Assembly (NCBI RefSeq): GCF_026210795.1
Contig: NC_089456.1
Span: forward strand, 3,040,501-3,104,500
DNA: 64,000 nucleotides
Origin: Rhizophagus irregularis
Taxonomy: Eukaryota > Glomeromycota > Glomeromycetes > Glomerales > Glomeraceae
Reading direction: 5' to 3'
This document shows positions 5,077 through 55,191 of the stretch, piece by piece (positions within the stretch are counted from its first letter, which is position 1; each line of letters starts with the position of its first letter). The translations under genes were made by a program, and so were the position numbers. The notes under the pieces are model-generated. The model saw nothing but the letters and a program-made list of their open reading frames with translations, was not told the DNA's origin and searched no databases.

Positions 5077-6951
5077 ATGACTTCCAATAAGACTATAGTA
5101 TTTGTTGAAATTGTTGGTGACTCAACACCAACAATGAAAAAATTGAATCTTGAAAATAATTTATCCAATATTCGTAAAGAACTCAAGAAAAATATTAATG
5201 ATATGAATATATTATTATTCGCAATAAAAGTAGGTCAAATATTTGCAAAAACCGAACCTGATGATGAAAATGATACGATTTTAAATGATATTATATTTGA
5301 AAATTCAGGAAGTAAATTTTTATATTTAATGAAAAATTCGAATCCAAGTTGGAAATATTTGAATGAAAAATGTAAATTAGATTTTGGACGTATTACGAGT
5401 TTTGACGGAATTAAAGAAGCTAGTAGTAAAGCGTTTAAAATGAGGGATTGTGAATTTAAACCAATTGATTCTAAAGGATATAAAAAGGGTCGACTTGAAT
5501 TTAAATCAGAAGAGGATTGGATGAAGAAAACAAACTTATTTTTTGGTATAGACATCAACGTACAAAATTTTATAGGATTAGGATTATCAATTGGAAAATC
5601 AAAAGATGAAAATTTTAAAGATGAAGTCAATTCAACTTATGTATATACAGAAATTGGTAAAGCGTCATTAAAATTTAATAAGGAAAATTTAGAATTAACT
5701 TCTCACTTTAGTAATGATGTCAAGAATGCTATAAAATCCAAAGAACATAATAAATTTAGGGAAATTATTGATAAATATGGACAATTTGTTCCAACTGAAG
5801 TCATTTTGGGAGGAAGAGTTTATTTTAAAGGCGTCAAAACATTATCAGAAAATTCTACAAATAAAACTAAAGAAAGTTCTGTGAACATGAATTTTGGACC
5901 TCCAATCGCAAGAATAGGAGGTAATTCTAGCGACTCGGAAAGAAAATCTGATTTTTACAGTTTTGATCACATGAAAATACTTGGAGGAAGCCCACCTGTT
6001 GATGAAAATTTCGATGAAAAAGTTTGGAATAAATCTTTAGAAGACTATCGAACTTGGGATTGTATAGAGCTTAAGAATCCTATTAATATTTTTAAATTAC
6101 TACCTGATGATATTTACAAAGAAGCATTTAAATCTATTGGTAAAAGAATTCTGCGTACAATTGTTAAGGATTATGAATATCGTTTAGATAATCCTGAAAG
6201 GTACCAAATTATTGAATTAACGGATGAAGAATCAAAAATTATTTTAAATAAAGATGCAGATTGTGATATCTTTGCAACAGTTGTTGATGATGATGAAAAT
6301 TCAAAAAAAGTATTTTTTAACTGTCAAATTTTGAAAAACCAAAATGCAAAACCCAGTATTATAATTCATGTTATACAAAAAGAACCTCAAAAACGTATAT
6401 GTAAATTGAAAATTGGAATAATGATCATTGGTTATGATGTAGATTTTAATTTTATTAATTCAAATGTTAGTGTTGAATTATTAGTAAATAATAATTATAA
6501 TTTTAATGATGGATTAATGGCAAATAACCTTTTTTTGGGAATTCCCGTATTAGAATATTTCAATCATTTGAATGATTCAATTACAATCGGTCATAATTTT
6601 CGCGAGTTAAATAATGAGCTTATCATAGAACCATTTTCTTATTGTTCAAAAAAACATTGTTATCATTTTTCTAATTTACCACAATTCTCTTTTTACACAA
6701 TTGTTATCAAAAATTATTCCAATATTTATGAATCTCGTATATTAGAATATCCAAAAAAAGATGAAATTAAATTTAGTGATAAATGTCCAAAATATATTAG
6801 TATGTATTTTTCAGAAGCTGATAGTTATTTACCAGTTTTTATGAACCAAAAAAGTGAAAAGGTTTATTTAAAACATTTTTGCAATAAGTGTGAGAAATGC
6901 AAACAAGAGCCGGAATATAATATCAAATTAAAAACGTACAGTATTCTTTAA
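5077..6951 (+). CDS. MACPF-like domain protein, 624 residues
   Basis: Single-exon gene from a clear ATG after an A-rich leader. Residues about 8-85 look like a small ubiquitin/RA-like alpha-beta module, which is inference from pattern. Residues 234-247 (YGQFVPTEVILGGR) match the spacing of the MACPF signature YG-H-F...GG, and residues 300-330 hold the ILGG...W..SLEDYRTW block followed by NPI-IF-LLP, as in the end of MACPF domains of plants and fungi. A C-terminal region (about 385-560) reads like a beta-rich module and ends with a Cys-rich tail CNKCEKCKQ. MACPF proteins insert pores in membranes; no signal peptide is visible here, so it is probably cytosolic. A frameshifted relative lies at 13600-14233, and the gene at 8814-12510 shares the YG-x-F...GG motif. 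Function is unproven. Confidence 0.75.
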   Translation: MTSNKTIVFVEIVGDSTPTMKKLNLENNLSNIRKELKKNINDMNILLFAIKVGQIFAKTEPDDENDTILNDIIFENSGSKFLYLMKNSNPSWKYLNEKCKLDFGRITSFDGIKEASSKAFKMRDCEFKPIDSKGYKKGRLEFKSEEDWMKKTNLFFGIDINVQNFIGLGLSIGKSKDENFKDEVNSTYVYTEIGKASLKFNKENLELTSHFSNDVKNAIKSKEHNKFREIIDKYGQFVPTEVILGGRVYFKGVKTLSENSTNKTKESSVNMNFGPPIARIGGNSSDSERKSDFYSFDHMKILGGSPPVDENFDEKVWNKSLEDYRTWDCIELKNPINIFKLLPDDIYKEAFKSIGKRILRTIVKDYEYRLDNPERYQIIELTDEESKIILNKDADCDIFATVVDDDENSKKVFFNCQILKNQNAKPSIIIHVIQKEPQKRICKLKIGIMIIGYDVDFNFINSNVSVELLVNNNYNFNDGLMANNLFLGIPVLEYFNHLNDSITIGHNFRELNNELIIEPFSYCSKKHCYHFSNLPQFSFYTIVIKNYSNIYESRILEYPKKDEIKFSDKCPKYISMYFSEADSYLPVFMNQKSEKVYLKHFCNKCEKCKQEPEYNIKLKTYSIL

Positions 6952-8813: not shown

Positions 8814-11800
8814 TTACCCAATACTTCTATCAAAATTATCCCTAGTTAAAATATATCCGATTAAAAGACATTCACTTTCTTTATTATTATCAATCCTTAA
8901 ACTTTTATAACTTGTAAGCGGAATACAAACATGTAAATCTACATCAATAATATCTTTCTCGGTGTCTGTTGAGGTATCATTTAAATTATCTTGAGATATT
9001 TGAAAATTAATAGAATTATGTGACCATTTAACTAACTTAATAATACTTTTAGGTTCATTTGTTGATGAATGATGTGCGTGTGCAAAAACAGTATACCCTT
9101 CATATAAAGTAAAACAAGTATCAATAGTATTATAATTAAATTCATTAGGTTGTAATTTAATGGATTTTTTAATATAATCAACTTGTAATTCTCGATTATT
9201 TGGACTAAAAACCAATAATTGTGAGGGTATTCCAATGATTATCCACGAAATATAACATTTTGTTATATCAATATTTGTCACTTTCAACTTTTTTATTATC
9301 GCATAAAATCCATTAACGTCGTATTGTCCAAAATTAACGTGAATTTCTTCTAATTTTGCGTTATTTTCTGAAATGATTGATCCACATACTTTATAATTTT
9401 CATTTTTCAACGATGATTCTAAATTAATACGTTTGTAATGGAAAACGTTAACTAAATCACCTTTAAATTCGTCTTTCAAATATTCCAAATCTTTCAAATC
9501 AGTAATTCCTGTCATTATAATTCGGGAATTTTGGAAATCATTAAATTTATCTAAAATATTACCTATTTTTTTTTGTTGTTCTTCTTTAAGAATTTTATAA
9601 AGAGGAATATTATTATCAAATTCAATAACCTCCAAATTATCATCCATATCTTCTATCCAATAAGATAAATTATCTATTTCAACGTTTTCTCCATTTTGTG
9701 TTAAAAGATACGAAACATTTAAATCATTTAGCGATTTAAGTATTTCATCAACATCATTAACATTTTCAAACGTATTATCTGAAGAATTTGGTAAAATAAT
9801 TTTTAAAGATCTTCCTAAAATAATCCTTCGTGAAAATAAGTGACCATATTCATTAAATATATGTTGTAAATCTTTTAATGGTTTCATACTGTTAAGTGCT
9901 TCTTCTATGACTTGTTCAAATTCTTTTGTTGGTTTTATATTATCTATATCTAAAAGAATTTCGTAACGTTCAGATTTAACTAGAATGTAATCAAAACCTT
10001 CATAACTCTCACCGTCAATTTTAATAAATGGAAAGGAACCTAAATTTTCAATTGGAAAAATATTACTGGAAATCAAGCCAACTTCCAATTTTGTTGATGG
10101 TCTGATCATTTTCAAATAAAATTTATCACTTAAATTGACTTTAGGAATTTTGATAAAATTCATGGCAATCTTCTTGCTAATTTCCATTTCATAATTTTGA
10201 TTAGTCATTAATCCATGGAATAAATTAAAATCTTTAGTCCAACAAATTAGATTATCATACGCCGCATTTCCGACCCAATCTTCTAAGATTAATTTTTCTT
10301 TGTCGACAATTCCAGGTTGTCTTTCATCACAAGTCTCAGAATCATCTGGTTTACTGTTTCTTAATTGAGAAATGGGAATTAGATTGTTATAAGAAATTAT
10401 ATAGACTAATTTTTCTTGATGCTTTTGATACAAATTATTTATCCATTCATAAAATTCTTCATGAGTATTTAATTCTTCCCCATCAATTGTTACTATTTTT
10501 GGTAGAAGGTTCAGAGTAAATAAATTATTAAATTCAACTTTTATAGAACATTTAACCAAATTATATACATAAAATAAATAATATTTTAACATATTCATTT
10601 GTGTTGAAGTAACTAAATTTAGACTTTTTAAAAATAATTTACCACCAATTAAAGTTTTTCTTGTAAAGAAATGACCATATAGATCATATAAATTTTCATC
10701 ATTATTATCATATTTTGAAAAAGATTTCAACAAACCACCTTTATAAGCAACTTCAGCAATCGGAAAATTAATACACAGTTCGGTTGATTTATTTATCTCA
10801 GTATATACTATCGGTTGTCCATTATATAAACTTATACTTAATTCACCATTTTTCACAAAAATAGCTTGTTTACTAGGCTGACCATCCAATAGTAAGCCAT
10901 GATTCAATTTTAAATGTTCAATCACTTGTTGATCAGATTCTATAAATTTTAACCCTTTTATTGCTATTTTTGTAATATGATAAGGTTGTAGCTCTCGATG
11001 ATTAATAGTTATAGGTTGTGGTAACGATGGTAATGACGTAAAATGATCAGGACGAGTATTCTCATCATCTGTACTATAATCAACATAAGTATTATCGTCA
11101 TCCGTTATCTCTGTATCACTATTTGGAGGTTGAATCGCTCCAGTAGCATCTAATTAATTTAGTAAATTATTGTATTAGTAAAAAGTTTTAAACGTATAAT
11201 AAAATATAATTAATTTACTAACTTGTTGAAGCATCATATTCCATATGTAGTACTTCTTCTTGACATACTTTCTCCAAATGATCTAACAGTATAGTTCTTG
11301 ACTTCTTTCTCGTTCCTTTGTTAATCCTAATAATAACCTCTTTATCATCATTATCATCATCATCATCATATTCAAGAATATTTATCGGAGGATTGTCTAC
11401 ATAAATGATACCTTTACATGATTTAATTATTTTGGCATTTATTTCGCTTTCCTCACACAGTTTCTCTTTATCCTTTTCGCATATGTCTTGATTTTTAAAG
11501 TTACTAAATTTAGTTCTCACAATAGTAGTACATTTAAAAATATCGCTTTCAAATAGTCTCAACGTGTTTATTTCATCTGTGAAATTTTTACCAACCACAA
11601 GTAAAACTTGGTTTATCCCTTCTGATAATGGTACCGAAAAGATTCCTTCTGCTATTCTATTTGAAACTTTCTTTGTAGATAGCCCAGTGCTTCCAACTCC
11701 AGTGGTATCAATCACTCGATATTTTGTTCCTTTCCATTCGAAAACTCCTTTTTTAAAATGTTTAGTCTTGCTAACTCCGTATTCACTTTCTTTGAAACCT

Positions 11801-12510
11801 TCAGTTTCAGTTAGTACACTAGCTAATGTGGATTTACCACTACCAGTACAACCAATTATTAATATATTCTTAATTTTCACTATTTTTTCTTCTTTTTCAA
11901 TAACTTTCAAGTCAGTTGGTTTAATAAGTTCAATATCTTTAGGGCAGCTGCTTATATCAAGACTAGTTAATTTACTATTATTAGAACAATCAAGATATCC
12001 TAATTTAAGACAATTACTTATATCTAAATTATCTAGTTTGTTATTATTAGAACAAATGAGTTTGATAATATTCGGACAAAGATTAAGGCTTAATCTTTTA
12101 ATTGAGGTGTTTGAACAATTGAGCTCAATAAGATTACTAACGTCTAAATCAGTCAATTCAATTAATTGACTATGAGAGATATCAAGCTTAGTTAATCTTG
12201 AACAATTACTTACAAATAAACTTTTAAGTTTACTAAGCTCAGATAAGTCAATCTTAGTAAGTTGAGGACAATTAATTATTTCCAAATCGGTTAACTTAAG
12301 CTTTTCTAAATAAATACTTTTTAATTTCGTAAAATTTTCTATTTTTAAAGGGCCATGAAGGTTTGATTTCACATTTAATTTATTACGAATATTCTCCTTT
12401 CTTAAATCTATTTTACTTATTTTTTCTTTTTCATTTAAATAATCTTGAGGATTTTTTCTCAATATATTTTTCCATTTTAAAGTACGAGAAGTTTTTTTAT
12501 TGGAGGACAT
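8814..12510 (-). CDS. LRR - AIG1-type GTPase - tandem MACPF-like protein (two exons, 1207 residues)
   Basis: Exon 1 is 12510-11223 and exon 2 is 11149-8814. The 73-bp intron (11222-11150) starts GTTAGT, carries a TACTAAT branch-point sequence and ends ATTAG, and both sides are in phase, giving 3624 coding bases. Exon 2 has no in-frame ATG near its beginning, whereas it stays open back to the splice site, which supports one gene instead of two. Residues 58-190 are leucine-rich repeats with recurring LDIS/LDCSNN. Residues 212-390 are a GTPase of the AIG1/GIMAP type: P-loop GCTGSGKST at 220-228, DTTGVG from 268, TKF near 333 in place of TKxD. An Asp-rich linker follows. Two MACPF-signature-like segments lie at about 587-601 (YGHFFTRKTLIGG) and 864-878 (YGHLFSRRIILG). 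No signal peptide or membrane segment is seen. The layout of sensor repeats, GTP switch and pore-like module resembles immune receptors; this is inference. Confidence 0.72.
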
Positions 12511-13599: not shown

Positions 13600-14233
13600 T
13601 TGTCAAAATTGAGATCGTATAGAATTACAAGATTCAGTTAGTATTTTCAACTCTTACCTAATGATTTACGTAAAAAAACTTTGAATCTCTTGAAAAAAAT
13701 ATCCTTTATTCAGAAGCCATAGATGAATATATCTCAAATGAAAGTGGTAAACCGGAATTGCAGAATTAACGAGTATAAGCGTACTAAAAATATTTTAGAT
13801 ATTCTTTTTTAAATAAAGAAGCGGAATGTAATATTTTTCCGACAGTTGTTGATACAGATGAATCCAAGAATGATTTCTTTTACATGCCAAATCCTTCTTC
13901 CAAGCCAAGTCTCATAATTCAAAGAAATATCAAAAAATGCAAATATAAATTAAAGATCGGAGTAATGATTGTTGGTTATGATACAAATTTTGATTTCACT
14001 TGTTCAGATTTAATGTCCAATTGAAAGTTCTAAAGCATAAGGTTAATACATCAAGTAATCAAATAATTAATATGGATTTATTAGATTTTGAATATAGAAA
14101 TGAACTATCTTATATTGAGATTCCTGTGTTAAATCAAATTCTTCAAATAACTCTCTTATTATTGGATATTTTTTTCGAAAATAAATTAGAGCATGCATAT
14201 TCCCTTATTATTGAAAACAAAGTGTTATATTAG
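13600..14233 (+). pseudogene. Broken relative of the MACPF-like gene at 5077-6951
   Basis: Pieces in order match the intact gene: DRIELQDSVSIF (compare CIELKNPINIF), LLPNDLRKK (LLPDDIYKE), EAECNIFPTVVDTDES (DADCDIFATVVDDDEN), and YKLKIGVMIVGYD (CKLKIGIMIIGYD). They lie in different frames: a one-base loss near 13651 breaks the first block, stop codons follow near 13770, and another frame change occurs near 14005. The N-terminal half, including the MACPF signature region, is absent. It lies downstream of and in the same orientation as the intact gene, so it is probably an old duplicate. Only the relationship is reported; no repaired reading is given. Confidence 0.85.
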
Positions 14234-14934: not shown

Positions 14935-15479
14935 GATCAGGGGGGAAAGGGGAATACGAAAGGGAAGGGAAAGGGTACGAAAGGGAAAGGGGAATACGAG
15001 AGGGAAAGGGGAATACGAAAGGGAAAGGGAAAGGGGAAAACGAAAGGGAAAGGGGAATACGAAAGGGAAAGGGAAAGGGTACGAAAGGGAAAGGGGAATA
15101 CGAAAGGGAAAGGGTACGAAAGGGAAAGGGGAATACGAGAGGGAAAGGGGAAAACGAGAGGGAAAGGGGAATACGAAAGGGAAAGGGAAAGGGTACGAAA
15201 GGGAAAGGGGAATACGAGAGGGAAAGGGGAATACGAGAGGGAAAGGGGAAAACGAAAGGGAAAGGGGAATACGAAAGGGAAAGGGTACGAAAGGGAAAGG
15301 GGAATACGAGAGGGAAAGGGAAAACGAAAGGGAAAGGAGAAAACGAAAGGGAAAGGGGAATACGAAAAGGAAAGGGAAAACGAGAGGGAAAGGGGAAAAC
15401 GAAAGGAAAAGGGAAAACAAGAGGGAAAGGGGAATACGAAGGAGAAAGGGAAAAGCGAAAGGGGAAGGGAAAGGAGCAA
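14935..15479 (+). repeat. Purine-rich minisatellite (GAAAGGGAAAGGGGAATAC type)
   Basis: About 545 bp of imperfect units built from GAAAGGGAAAGGGGAATAC and AAAGGGTACGAAAGGG. The plus strand is nearly all purine, broken only by TACGA or ACGA. Because the units lack stop codons, several frames on both strands stay open for about 200 residues and give low-complexity Lys/Arg/Gly/Glu or Phe/Pro/Ser peptides. These are best read as an artefact of the repeat. Many closely spaced GGG runs could form G-quadruplexes, and the polypurine strand could form triplexes. Confidence 0.9.
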
Positions 15480-23822: not shown

Positions 23823-25112
23823 CTATTTATTATGCGCGAATCCAACACTTGGATTTTCCACTCTAAATACGGAATATACATTCTTTAAAAATGGTGTACC
23901 AACAAGCCAAGTAACATTTTTTCCATCAAAATTAAATCCAGGAACAATGGACGAGACACAATTACTTCCATCTATCGGTGCAGTAATTAGGTCTTTGGGA
24001 TTAATTTCAAAATTAACACCTCCAAATTTAAAGGCAACTGCGGAGGTGGTATTACATGGGATAATGAACATACCGCTCTTAGTATCTAAAGTTGCTCCTG
24101 GAATCTGGCTATGAATTTCCGCTGCGTCATTATCGGGCAATATAATTGTTGAAGTACCAGTATCGATGATAGCGTTTCTTCCTTTAAAAGCTAATGATTT
24201 TTTATTTACACTTGCATCATCTACATTGATTAACCAAAAAGCTAACGTATTAACAGTAGGACTTATGGGAGTATTAATAACGCGGTTAAAAGTAATTTTC
24301 CCTTTGAATTTGCTATTATCAACACCACCTATGGTAAGTGTTCCTTGATCATTGAAATTTGAAACACGAGAAAGATGAAAACTAAAGAGTGGATTAATCT
24401 TTTTCTGTTTAATCAGGGTTGATATTAAAGTCGGAGCGTGATTGTCCATAGTGTTCAGACTATCAAAGGCCAAACCACAAATTCCATCAGATTCAAGATT
24501 AACGAACTCATCAGACAAATTATCCGCTAATCCAAAAATTTGTTTTTCGGCAGTAAAATCACCGATTTTAACATTATCTATTCCGGTGACACCAGAAGCG
24601 GCACCAGTGCCAAAAGTGATATTCCATGGATTACCCTCTTCCTTAAAAGTTTTTGATTTTTTTGTATCAAATGAATTATGATTTTGGCAAGCTGCAGTAG
24701 TACAATTAGTATTTGGAACAAAGATATTTGAAGACCCGGTATCCATAAGCATATTGAAATTTTGGTTTCCGATCTGGATTGCTGCGAAATAAGCATCATC
24801 AAATTGTATGTCTTTTATATCTATTGTACTTTGTTTCTTCTTCGAGTATGCTTTATTATTGCTTTGTTTAAAGGTAGCATGATTGTTAAAATTTTTTGAA
24901 CTACTTTTTTCCATTATTTCCTTGGAATTTTTATATTTATTTAGGGCAGCATCTCTCAAGTGTTTCGCATAACCCATTGAATCCATAGATCCGGAAGTAC
25001 GATCTCTTCTAGTTAACCTGATGGTATGCAAAGGTCTAGCATTTATATCATGAATAACAAGTGCAGAAAAGATGACGAAGAGAAAAGCCAGCTTCATGAA
25101 GGTCAACTTCAT
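23823..25112 (-). CDS. Secreted pepsin-like aspartic protease (family A1), 429 residues
   Basis: A signal peptide (residues 1-25, hydrophobic core LAFLFVIFSALVI) is followed by a propeptide to about residue 98 and the mature enzyme. Two catalytic motifs are intact: DTGSSN with Asp124 and DTGTST with Asp317. GQIF-type loop residues and FWLINVDD are recognisable. The enzyme should cleave proteins between hydrophobic residues outside the cell or in the vacuole. Odd point: the flap reads WNITFGTGAASG, with Phe at 167 where pepsins have the conserved flap Tyr. Length fits the family. Single exon; the start is the first Met of the signal peptide. Secreted A1 proteases of fungi serve nutrition or host interaction; which applies here is unknown. 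Confidence 0.93.
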   Translation of the reverse strand: MKLTFMKLAFLFVIFSALVIHDINARPLHTIRLTRRDRTSGSMDSMGYAKHLRDAALNKYKNSKEIMEKSSSKNFNNHATFKQSNNKAYSKKKQSTIDIKDIQFDDAYFAAIQIGNQNFNMLMDTGSSNIFVPNTNCTTAACQNHNSFDTKKSKTFKEEGNPWNITFGTGAASGVTGIDNVKIGDFTAEKQIFGLADNLSDEFVNLESDGICGLAFDSLNTMDNHAPTLISTLIKQKKINPLFSFHLSRVSNFNDQGTLTIGGVDNSKFKGKITFNRVINTPISPTVNTLAFWLINVDDASVNKKSLAFKGRNAIIDTGTSTIILPDNDAAEIHSQIPGATLDTKSGMFIIPCNTTSAVAFKFGGVNFEINPKDLITAPIDGSNCVSSIVPGFNFDGKNVTWLVGTPFLKNVYSVFRVENPSVGFAHNK

Positions 25113-25853
25113 GGTTTCAAATTATGAAAAAATATTAATATTAAAATTATTAAGTTAAATCGGAATAAATTTCTAAAAAAAAAAATGCGTATTTGAGAAA
25201 TTAAGGATATTTTATAATCAAAAAACTTCGAAAAATCGTCATTGTGCGTAAAATTACAATTCTATTAATAATATTTCTTGGCTAGTTTCACATTAAGATA
25301 AACAGACTACATAAGTTTTGAATTACGCCGATCATTCTTTTTTTGGATAGTGCCAGCCGGTGTTATGCGAATAGCAAATCTCATTTACATTATTGACTTT
25401 AACTTTTATAGAAATTATTTTGCTTGGCATTCCATAAAAAGATTTAATTGGCAAATTTCGTAACGTACGGAGGTCTAGTAATGGAGTTTCATTTTAAAAT
25501 TGACAAAGGAAAACAGGTTTATTTAGTATTATCTATGGAAAACAACGTTCTCCTTATTTACCTTAATCATTTGTTTTATTTGACTTAAAAAAAAATGTAG
25601 CATAAAGCAATTGTTATTTTTTTTTATTTTTTTTTTGTTTTGTTCCATAATGACAAAATATTTTTTTTTCAATGAAGAAGGGGGAAGGGGAAATAATTTA
25701 ATCGGTCTAATAATAAAATTTTTTTTAAAAATATTTTAAAAGTTTCTAAAAAAAAATAAACATTTTTAGAAAAACTTTCAGTTTCTTTGATTTTCTAATT
25801 AATTAAGAGTTTTGGTCCTAACTTCAAATATAAAAATCGGATTATTGATTTTA
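25113..25853. other. Spacer and promoter region of the protease gene
   Basis: AT-rich, with T- and A-runs at 25617-25640. No gene recognised. Confidence 0.35.
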
Positions 25854-52008: not shown

Positions 52009-55000
52009 ATGAATAAAAATAATATTGATACACAAATTGAAGGAGGTTTAATACTGATTAAAAATCTCCAATGGTATTTATTTATTTTATTTCCGTTTTC
52101 TTTTTGGTTTCATTGTTAATAATATTACACAATTCATAAAAACAATTTAGTATTATCATAAGCGAAAAAGTGGAAAGGTCATTAGCGAATAGGTTAATGT
52201 CAAGATTTTTATTGAAAGATTCTGAAAAGATACTTTTAGAAATTGAATTTAATGGCATGAATAAACAAACGATTCCATCTTTAGCGTAAGTTAATCAAAT
52301 TGCAATACCTCTTAAATTGATTAACTTAAAAAAAAAAAAATTAATATAAAAAAATTATTTTGTTATGTAGGACATCATCATCAGATAATACAACAAAGAA
52401 AGTTGCATGGGATGAACATATTCACTTTAAGATCGATGCGCCCTTAAATCCGTCTAGAAGTAACGAATTAACCATTAGATGTTGGAATACATCTATTAAA
52501 GGTTATGACGGATGTTTAGGACAAATAAGTGAGGCTTTAATAAATTTTGATAAATCTGGTGAACCAAGAAGTAAGTATTGTAATACGATAATATGAATTC
52601 TTTAGTCAAACAAAAATTAATAATTAAAATATATTCCATTTTAAGTTACCTTGACACTTCGAGAGGGAAATCCCAATATAAAAATATCGTTTTCTTTATA
52701 TTTCTTATCAAACGTAAGTTAACACATCAATTATTACAAATTATAATTAATTAATTAATTAATTATATTTTTATATTTTCTTGATAAGGTTCCACCACCA
52801 GAGATGAAACTTTTCGACGATGACTCAATTCGCGACAAAAAAATCGGGATGATATTAATTAATAATATAAAATAGTAATATATTATGATTTAATTTTTAT
52901 TGTATTTTTTTTTTTTTAAAAAAAATAACATTATTTTAATATTTATAATATTAATAGTAAAAATATACTTGGTCACAGCGGAACATTAGAGTTCATATTA
53001 CAAAAAGCATTAAATACTTCAGGACACTGGCATACAATTCCAATAGTTCATAATTCTTCACATCAGAAACAATTAGAATGGAAATATCCTATTGCAATGT
53101 TCTTGAAAGCAGGACCTGATAAATTGATCATTCGTTTTAAACACGGAATTAGAGGACATGCTGAAGTCAAAATTGGTATTGGACCTACCGGTGAATTGAT
53201 GTCAATTTGGTCAGATTTATCTGAAGGTGGACATGGAAATGGTAAAAAAGGTATGATGGTTTTTTTTTATATTAAGTTTATTTTTTGTCAAAACAAGAAA
53301 ATAATATTTAATAAAATTTTTTAGTTGGAGATTATACTTTGATGGAGAAGGAGAGGGGATGTGAAGAAATAGAGATTACTTTTGATTTATCATGTCATTC
53401 CATAGTTACATCAAGAGATATCTTTAAAGAAAAGAGAAAATCAAGTAAACCACCACCACCGCCGCCACCTCCAAGGCGTGTTCTATCTTATAGAAGTATT
53501 AATCGCCCACAAGAACCTATAGCTTCATCATCATTAAATGATCATCGACCACAAGAATATCAAAATTTCGAGCAAAATGAACGCCAAAGAAAGCCTTCTT
53601 TGCAAGAGAATATAATTGTTCCTGAAAATCATAGATTATCTAATCTATTACTGACTAAAAGTTTTGATCCAAATGATCGTAGATCTGAATCTTTAAAATC
53701 TCAATCAGATTCATTGAATTCCAGTAAAATGTCTGAATCTTCAAAGCAAAAAACCGGTCAACAAATAATAAACAATAATTTAAATTTCGGAGAACCATAT
53801 TATAATGGTAATAATGGAAATGGAGCGTCTTACGTTATCACCGAAGAACCTCGTACATATTTTGAAGAAGAAAATTCACAAGTAGAGCGAGATCCATCAA
53901 TAACTTCACGAACCTCTTCTTCAAGATCACAACAAAATCAATCCTTTCATAAAAAATCTAAGCCATTAGACATTATTAATAAGGGTAAAAACAAGTTTAC
54001 ATCAAGAAATACAGATCAACACGTCAAAATTGGTTATTCTCCACCTTCATTACAAGATTATCAAATCGGATCTTTTATTTACGAGGATAGTGATGGAAAG
54101 TTACAAAGCAACTTATATCAAAGTACTAAACAAAACATTCTCCCAAATACACCACAAGATAATGAACCATCACCAATACCCCAAACTGATACAATTTATC
54201 CTAACACACGCACGATTAACAACGACAATTCAAATTCATTACCAAAATATATATATAATAAATATCAATTAATTTCTCAAATACCAAAGTCAAAGCAGAA
54301 TAAAGTATATCTGGGTCAACATATACTTACCTCAGATAAGGTGGTAGTTAAATTTTATAAATCTCGTTCAAGATGGGAAAATGAAACCCATTTTTTGAAA
54401 GCTCTTACGTCGAAATCAACCGTAAAGTTGGAGGAAATAACTGTGAATCCGGCCGAAGAACAAAATTATTTCATAATCACGAGGTATTTCGGAAAATCTT
54501 TAGATGAAATCGTAGAGAATATTCGTGATAATAAAACACATATAAAAAGTGTACTTTTGGGTACTTGTAAAGCTGTAGAGTGGTGTCATAGTAAAGGTGT
54601 AGTGGTAAGTTAAATTCAAATTTAAATTATTTAATTATTCTCATTATTCTCAATTTTTCTAATTTAATTATTTTTAAAATATAGCACATGGATTTAAATC
54701 CTTCTAATATTATATGCAAGGATCAAAAGATTCACAAAATAGTGTTATGTGACTTTGAGCATTCAAAAAATGCTGGTGATAATATTTGCTCGGACAAATA
54801 TAATCAGCCATTACAATTAGGGTTTACATCACCAGAACTACTCTTTCTTCATCAAGTCGTATCATCATCAGCGTCACAATCATCATACTCACCTTCTTCA
54901 TACTCCTCTACTACTTCTTCCACGTATTATACTAGTAAATCTCACCCAGAAACTTTATTAGTAAAACAAAGTATAGATATCTTTAGTCTGGGTTGTATAT

Positions 55001-55191
55001 TTTATTTTTTGAATAAAACCCATTTATTGTATAATTCCCAAAAAGAATTAGAACAATTAAACCTAACTAAAGTTTGCGAAGATATTGAAGATGAGCAGGT
55101 CTCTATTTTAGTTAAGTGTATGGTAGCTGAAAACGGTAGTAAAAGACCCAATATTACACAAATATTAGAAAATCCATACCTTAAGAATTAA
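52009..55191 (+). CDS. Tandem C2-domain protein with atypical protein kinase domain (eight exons, 877 residues)
   Basis: Exons are 52009-52073, 52151-52285, 52371-52570, 52646-52713, 52789-52874, 52958-53250, 53325-54604 and 54685-55191; all joins are in phase (2634 coding bases). Residues 8-155 form a C2 domain (GGLILIKNLQ; KVAWDEHIHFKI; GCLGQISEALI). A second C2-like domain spans about 175-310. Poly-Pro (325-332) and a Ser/Asn-rich linker follow. The kinase domain is about 595-877: VVVKFYK with Lys625, Glu near 636, HMDLNPSN with Asp712 and Asn717, SPELL and IDIFSLGCIFYF. Odd points: no glycine-rich loop (QIPKSKQNKVYLG), DFE at 732-734 in place of DFG, and a Ser-rich insert before the SIDIF block. 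Catalysis is possible but uncertain. C2 domains suggest membrane or lipid recruitment; Ca2+-binding Asp residues are few. Exons 5-6 (TA/GTAATA donor) are the least certain join. Confidence 0.82.

What the first reader, a model, noticed from the sequence alone, without database searches (positions are those of the whole stretch)
8814..12510. One gene joins LRRs, an AIG1-type GTPase and two MACPF-like segments
Two neighbouring frames look like separate genes, but the first ends at GT (11222) and the second stays open to an AG (11150). The 73-bp gap has GTTAGT, TACTAAT and ATTAG, and the phase fits. The result is a 1207-residue sensor-switch-pore-like layout that recalls immune or allorecognition receptors. 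The domain order is read directly; the role is inference.
Basis: partly seen in the sequence, partly recalled or inferred. Interest (0 to 1): 0.82.

Follow-up and report, generated by a model that had tools for sequence, protein, structure and literature searches.

The report
Fungal receptor-like gene with two MACPFs
A root-symbiotic fungus has a gene that joins a recognition-type repeat domain, a switch-type GTPase and two perforin-like domains in one protein, close to a second perforin-like gene that often accompanies this family; it may be part of an as yet unexplored set of self/non-self or defence receptors.

Summary

This module is an expanded, recombining family (87 matching stretches here; merged by hand to 55 places), joined elsewhere to kinases, Sel1 repeats, triple AIG1 GTPases, GBP or Argonaute. 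A MACPF-DUF7431 gene lies within 6.5 kb of 32 of 55 modules, against 9.7 expected; the window's is 5077-6951. One uninterrupted ORF fuses both kinds.

Best reading: a GTPase-controlled intracellular receptor that seeds or gates the partner MACPF at a membrane. Transcript, ligand, pore and role are untested, and the module's membrane-hairpin regions look short.

The parts
11223..12510 (-). Exon 1, ATG at 12510: basic N-terminus, LRRs, AIG1-type GTPase
11938..12348 (-). Leucine-rich repeats (spliced residues about 55-191), internalin-J-like in sequence
   Evidence: LRR_4 E 2.2e-7 on the exon-1 frame, below cut-off on whole P0001; PDB 3bz5 E 3.3e-19; repeat region of different length in P0012 and P0013
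11485..11871 (-). AIG1/GIMAP-type GTPase (spliced residues 214-342); P-loop GCTGSGKST at 11827-11853, DTTG present
   Evidence: PF04548 40-40.5 bits over a cut-off of 27, profile positions 1-133 of 212
11150..11222 (-). Intron, 73 bp, GT-AG, TACTAAT branch-like motif, phase 1
   Evidence: same-length protein P0001
8814..11149 (-). Exon 2 with stop at 8814-8816: low-confidence linker (pLDDT under 50 over residues 1-57), then the tandem-MACPF module
10299..10982 (-). MACPF/CDC domain 1 (exon-2 residues about 58-285); motif YGHFFTRKTLIGG at 10641-10679
9537..10268 (-). MACPF domain 2 (exon-2 residues 296-539); motif YGHLFSRRIILGR at 9810-9848
8913..9440 (-). C-terminal beta-rich region (exon-2 residues about 572-747), weak phage-fibre/tailspike-like matches
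5077..6951 (+). Partner gene, one open frame, 624 aa, MACPF-DUF7431, convergent with the receptor gene
   Evidence: DUF7431 E 5.5e-71, MACPF E 2.2e-8, MACPF_1 E 8.5e-10, each above its cut-off; P0121 98% identical
13704..14021 (+). Degraded DUF7431 remnant with three in-frame TAA, on the 5' side of the receptor gene
   Evidence: 82.3 bits

Best explanation
This is a single gene for an intracellular, receptor-like protein of an arbuscular mycorrhizal fungus. The LRRs are the variable recognition part, the AIG1-type GTPase is the switch and oligomerisation part, and the tandem MACPF module is the membrane-directed effector part. It most likely works together with the neighbouring MACPF-DUF7431 protein: on recognition the GTPase assembles receptor molecules, their MACPF domains present beta-sheet edges, and the partner MACPF joins and inserts, as different MACPF subunits do in the complement membrane attack complex. 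Shown here by computation: the joined gene, the domains, two MACPF folds, family expansion with swapped partners, and the recurrent gene pair and its fusions. Inferred: cytosolic location, recognition by LRRs, GTP control, assembly with the partner, membrane damage, and a role in self/non-self control after hyphal fusion or in defence.
For: Gene and domains. MACPF folds. Whole LRR-AIG1-module order in four of the listed proteins: P0001 and P0013 (R. irregularis), P0003 and P0012 (R. clarus). Pairing: 32 of 55 merged modules have a DUF7431 match within 6.5 kb, shuffle mean 9.7, maximum 29, reached by 0 of 5000 shuffles; outside the two big clusters 8 of 12. In R. clarus 9 of 15 tagged, unfused module genes have a DUF7431 gene within two tag numbers (tags read by hand, each a list of the best 120). 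Fusion: a 1520-aa uninterrupted ORF holds kinase tail + module + MACPF-DUF7431, the last part 48.7% identical over 636 aa to the window's partner; P0004 has the reverse order. Joins with a GBP GTPase (P0082) and with three AIG1 GTPases suggest that GTPases were joined to this module more than once. No signal peptide is seen at MSSNKKTSRTLKWKN (direct reading, no program).
Against: No expression, biochemical or phenotypic data. The presumed hairpin regions are short (23 and 41 aa in domain 1; 38 and 25 aa in domain 2, borders set by me), and only the second of domain 1 has a significant amphipathic strand (p 0.002); the second of domain 2 looks like an amphipathic helix (p 0.002); the partner's two regions (32 and 45 aa) gave nothing significant. 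Distances of module and partner correlate unevenly: all 17 pairs r 0.12, p 0.14; R. clarus 9 pairs r 0.54, p 0.004; R. irregularis 8 pairs r 0.30, p 0.047; 11 separate-gene pairs r 0.34, p 0.013; the nearest relative of the window's module (P0004) is not that of its partner (P0122). 23 of 55 modules have no DUF7431 match within 6.5 kb, on C15 14 of 20, and R. clarus P0012 and P0003, the closest in architecture, have no listed partner within two tags. The GTPase has no clear G4 aspartate (VRTKFSNF, direct reading; motif recalled), so GTP specificity is open. Pfam MACPF_1 is below cut-off. Foldseek TM-scores are low (0.23/0.36 at best E, rmsd 12.6) because single domains of a long model are matched.
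Confidence: 0.42

Rival explanations
1. Autonomous pore former: the receptor's own tandem MACPF domains oligomerise and insert, and the neighbouring gene is only a duplicated cousin.
For: Domain 2 is a close fold match to the pore former pleurotolysin B; domain 1 has one amphipathic strand segment, p 0.002; 23 of 55 modules lack a near partner.
Against: Short hairpin regions; pairing beyond chance and fusion.
Confidence: 0.18
2. Non-lytic scaffold: the MACPF domains are degenerate and serve protein-protein or membrane scaffolding in signalling, as the joins to kinases, Sel1 repeats and Argonaute suggest.
For: Weak hairpin signals in module and partner; varied partners; astrotactin-2, a MACPF protein of neuronal development, is among the fold matches.
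Against: MACPF core kept and closest to a pore former.
Confidence: 0.27
3. Secreted toxin or effector against plant, bacteria or nematodes.
For: Pleurotolysin B, the closest fold, is a secreted fungal pore former (recalled).
Against: No signal peptide in this protein by direct reading; joins to GTPases, kinases and Argonaute point to the cytosol.
Confidence: 0.05
4. By-product of gene shuffling in a repeat-rich region, without selected function.
For: A degraded remnant lies nearby; the family sits in dense clusters on C28 and C15.
Against: Intact 1207-aa frame in a second R. irregularis protein with 15 substitutions and the same architecture in R. clarus at 49% identity over 99%.
Confidence: 0.06

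Closest known systems
Pleurotolysin B (fungal MACPF pore former)
   Different: Here two MACPF domains in tandem, shorter hairpin regions, no visible signal peptide, LRR and GTPase in front
Fungal NLR/STAND receptors with adjacent or fused cell-death effectors (NWD2/HET-S and HeLo domains, PMC9815663; HET-Q2/HET-Q1 gasdermin, PMC12881547; passages read)
   Same: Receptor-like layout, large variable repertoire, gene pairs with a membrane-acting partner
   Different: No NACHT or NB-ARC family found; AIG1-type GTPase and LRRs instead; MACPF instead of HeLo or gasdermin. The passages read name ANK, TPR or WD repeats in place of LRRs in fungal NLRs
GIMAP/AIG1 GTPases, including the AIG1-Hint proteins of Glomeromycotina (PMC8778642, passages read)
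   Same: AIG1 profile over Pfam cut-off; 91 matching stretches in this genome (the profile also rang in 13 of 14 control genomes, over cut-off in 8, so the count includes other GTPases)
   Different: Joined to LRRs and MACPF, not Hint
Complement membrane attack complex (C6-C9)
   Different: Extracellular and without GTPase; the analogy of mechanism is inference
Expanded kinase, Sel1 and PIWI families of R. irregularis (PMC8647823, passages read)
   Same: Many tandem-MACPF module proteins carry these very domains
   Different: The main text has 0 occurrences of MACPF

Membership tests
MACPF/CDC superfamily | MACPF fold | tested here: met
MACPF/CDC superfamily | Signature Y-G-(T/S)-H-(Y/F)-x6-G-G (recalled) | tested here: inconclusive
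   YGHFFTRKTLIGG and YGHLFSRRIILGR: related, the first with GG, the second with GR, both lacking the residue between G and H
MACPF/CDC superfamily | Pfam MACPF or MACPF_1 score above cut-off | tested here: not met
   MACPF_1 25.2 of 27.5 bits, 24.0 in P0001; the partner gene passes for both profiles
MACPF pore formers | Two amphipathic membrane hairpins per domain | tested here: inconclusive
   1 of 4 regions with a significant strand pattern
MACPF pore formers | Oligomeric membrane pore | not testable with these tools
   needs protein
AIG1/GIMAP GTPases | AIG1 profile above cut-off, G1 and G3 motifs | tested here: met
   40 bits over 27, profile positions 1-133 of 212; GCTGSGKST, DTTG
AIG1/GIMAP GTPases | G4 motif with aspartate (recalled) | tested here: inconclusive
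   VRTKFSNF by reading; no clear aspartate
NLR/STAND receptors | NACHT or NB-ARC ATPase | tested here: not met
   No such Pfam family among the matches of P0001 at E 0.01; only weak P-loop matches incl. nSTAND3 E 0.22 on the exon-1 frame. Works like, not member of
NLR/STAND receptors | Superstructure-forming repeats | tested here: met
   LRRs,
Allorecognition (het) genes | Alleles whose mixing triggers incompatibility | not testable with these tools
   needs genetics

The most novel reading that the evidence does not exclude
Arbuscular mycorrhizal fungi (so far Rhizophagus, Glomus and Funneliformis by the names listed) own a large intracellular recognition system, not met in my literature searches, built on a tandem MACPF module that is recombined with LRR-AIG1, triple AIG1, kinase, Sel1, GBP or Argonaute parts and paired with a MACPF-DUF7431 executor. 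It does for these fungi what NLR and gasdermin pairs do for ascomycetes, and it decides fusion incompatibility or defence.
Probability: 0.33. Interest if true: 0.92.

Novelty: new variant of a known kind. Interest (0 to 1): 0.74.

Why it matters
Pre- and post-fusion incompatibility between isolates is described for R. irregularis and its kin (PMC12712441, passages read); the passages that I read name no gene for it in these fungi. A clustered, paired, receptor-like MACPF family gives concrete candidates. If confirmed, it would add MACPF as effector and a GIMAP-type GTPase as switch to the known fungal receptor systems, and a natural tandem-MACPF protein. The most testable part, whether the two neighbouring MACPF genes form one unit, needs only heterologous expression.

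Tried and rejected
Two separate genes: rejected, because exon 2 has no Met before residue 186 and P0001 spans both. Sequence search of the PDB with exon 2: no meaningful match, best E 0.42; structure was needed. Rfam on the window: 0 matches. Amphipathic-hairpin test: mostly negative. Distance-correlation test: mixed, not significant for all pairs; one pair (fusP0061) was dropped before counting because its partner part was too short, the second use of P0123 (label Rc_dup) was left out of the tests, one pair (P0013/P0122) rests only on equal contig length, and one (16150002/05) is three tags apart. Upstream look at module loci: 29 of 30 loci printed, L026 (in-frame stop) left out.

Literature: (MACPF with Rhizophagus, with AIG1 and fungi, with Glomeromycota) listed 3, 1 and 1 papers, none of them by title or abstract start about this family and none opened; (two or tandem MACPF domains) listed 2 papers, on complement C8 and CD59, not opened; (fungal NLR, MACPF, allorecognition, two of three terms) listed 15 of 16, of which I read passages in three; (perforin and mycorrhizal terms, two of three) listed 15 of 454, none of the 15 with perforin, so it is weak evidence. 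Searches gave the context papers cited. The library holds only openly licensed PMC papers. The Aig1 gene GBC10892.1 that rises when two isolates share a root (PMC7490403, passages read) was not shown to be this gene. NACHT, NB-ARC and gasdermin folds are not among the listed fold matches, which excludes nothing by itself.

Full report
The window lies in a 146.7-Mb genome in 32 contigs, at C28:3040501-3104500.

Gene model. The reported intron is real in sequence terms: GT-AG, 73 bp, low GC, branch-like TACTAAT, right phase. The 1207-aa product matches a database protein of R. irregularis of the same length with 15 differences. R. clarus P0012 keeps the whole order at 49% identity over 99%. P0013 has the same STN residues where the window's splice falls. 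No transcript data were available.

Family. In this genome exon 2 gave 87 matching stretches, a lower bound, mostly on C28 (1.78-3.05 Mb) and C15 (0.2-1.2 Mb). The best copies of the LRR-AIG1 part after the gene itself are mostly on C10. Of the 120 homologues listed out of 190, 116 carry at least 360 of the module's profile columns. By the precomputed Pfam labels these also hold: none of the labels counted 37, kinase 34, kinase+Sel1 11, Sel1 8, DUF7431 7, kinase+GTPase 6, GTPase 5, kinase+Argonaute 3, kinase+DUF7431 3, GBP 1, kinase+GBP 1. Some of these may be annotation fusions, but open frames in this genome show kinase tail - module - Argonaute-like (L019) and kinase tail - module - MACPF-DUF7431 (L031). 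The named hits with the module are Rhizophagus, Glomus and Funneliformis; others are unnamed metagenome proteins. Of the 120 proteins listed out of 506 for the LRR-AIG1 part, 20 carry the module: 4 with LRR-AIG1 (P0001, P0003, P0012, P0013) and 16 others; the 7 of those 16 that I aligned (P0002, P0006-P0011) each show three AIG1-type GTPase stretches.

Gene pair. The ORF 5077-6951 (+) is MACPF-DUF7431, convergent with the receptor gene. DUF7431 gave 99 matching stretches in the genome; in the 14 control genomes it rang in one, below cut-off. After merging, 32 of 55 modules have their nearest DUF7431 match within 6.5 kb (18 divergent, 6 convergent, 8 tandem). Rotating the modules inside the clusters, or moving single ones by up to 250 kb, gave a mean of 9.7 and a maximum of 29 in 5000 trials, none reaching 32; at 5 kb it was 30 observed, mean 8.2, maximum 25. 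On C28 the count is 18 of 23, on C15 6 of 20, elsewhere 8 of 12. R. clarus shows alternating tags on one contig: module genes 09420001 and 03, a fused one 05, DUF7431 genes 02, 04 and 06. Its 09420002 is the best R. clarus match to the window's partner (69%), and its neighbour 09420003 the best-scoring R. clarus match to the spliced query. I took tag numbers as gene order, a convention that was not tested. Database entries P0001 and P0121, and P0013 and P0122, list the same longest contig length (4811335 and 5793690), which suggests that these pairs also lie on one contig. The distance-correlation test is mixed, so partners are probably exchanged often.

Mechanism. The layout, the lack of a signal peptide by reading, and the pairing point to an intracellular, GTPase-controlled MACPF receptor with a MACPF partner. 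The weak point is membrane insertion: the hairpin regions of the module are short and mostly not amphipathic. I therefore prefer a model in which the module seeds or gates and the partner executes; the partner's own hairpin test was not significant either.

Context in print. Passages read in PMC8647823 describe expanded kinase, Sel1 and PIWI families of this fungus; its main text does not contain MACPF. PMC8778642 reports AIG1-Hint proteins expanded in Glomeromycotina, and PMC7490403 an Aig1 gene that rises when two isolates coexist in a root. PMC6872716 places two R. irregularis AIG1-like sequences with nematode ones. PMC12712441 describes post-fusion incompatibility in these fungi. Reviews and surveys of fungal cell death and NLRs (PMC12881547, PMC9815663, PMC10197012; passages read) treat NLR, HeLo and gasdermin systems; 'perforin' has 0 occurrences in the first two and 'MACPF' 0 in all three.

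Noticed in passing
L019 (G000:C28:1780769-1782772 and flanks): One open frame joins a kinase tail, the tandem-MACPF module and an Argonaute-like part (22% identity over 375 aa to P0051); P0051, P0074 and P0107 are listed with kinase and Argonaute domains.
   Followed up: partly
L031:149-4708: Uninterrupted 1520-aa ORF: kinase tail, tandem-MACPF module, MACPF-DUF7431.
   Followed up: yes
database protein P0300: A kinase + AIG1 protein is filed under the fungal endobacterium Candidatus Moeniiplasma glomeromycotorum: gene transfer with the host or a misplaced contig.
   Followed up: no
database protein P0082: Guanylate-binding-protein GTPase (E 9.6e-40) after a tandem-MACPF module: a second kind of GTPase joined to the same module.
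   Followed up: partly
window 14943-15469: Long purine-rich tandem array (19-bp unit, 27.5 copies) with open frames on both strands, beside the DUF7431 remnant.
   Followed up: no
window 23823-25121: Aspartyl protease gene (PF00026 E 4.4e-73) in a single ORF with a hydrophobic N-terminus by reading.
   Followed up: no
window 53315-55191: Protein kinase-like gene (27.9 bits, below the cut-off of 31.7) split over two frames, probably by an intron near 54613-54685.
   Followed up: no
G000:C28:3037813-3040092 (L028): Another tandem-MACPF module ends about 400 bp left of the window.
   Followed up: partly
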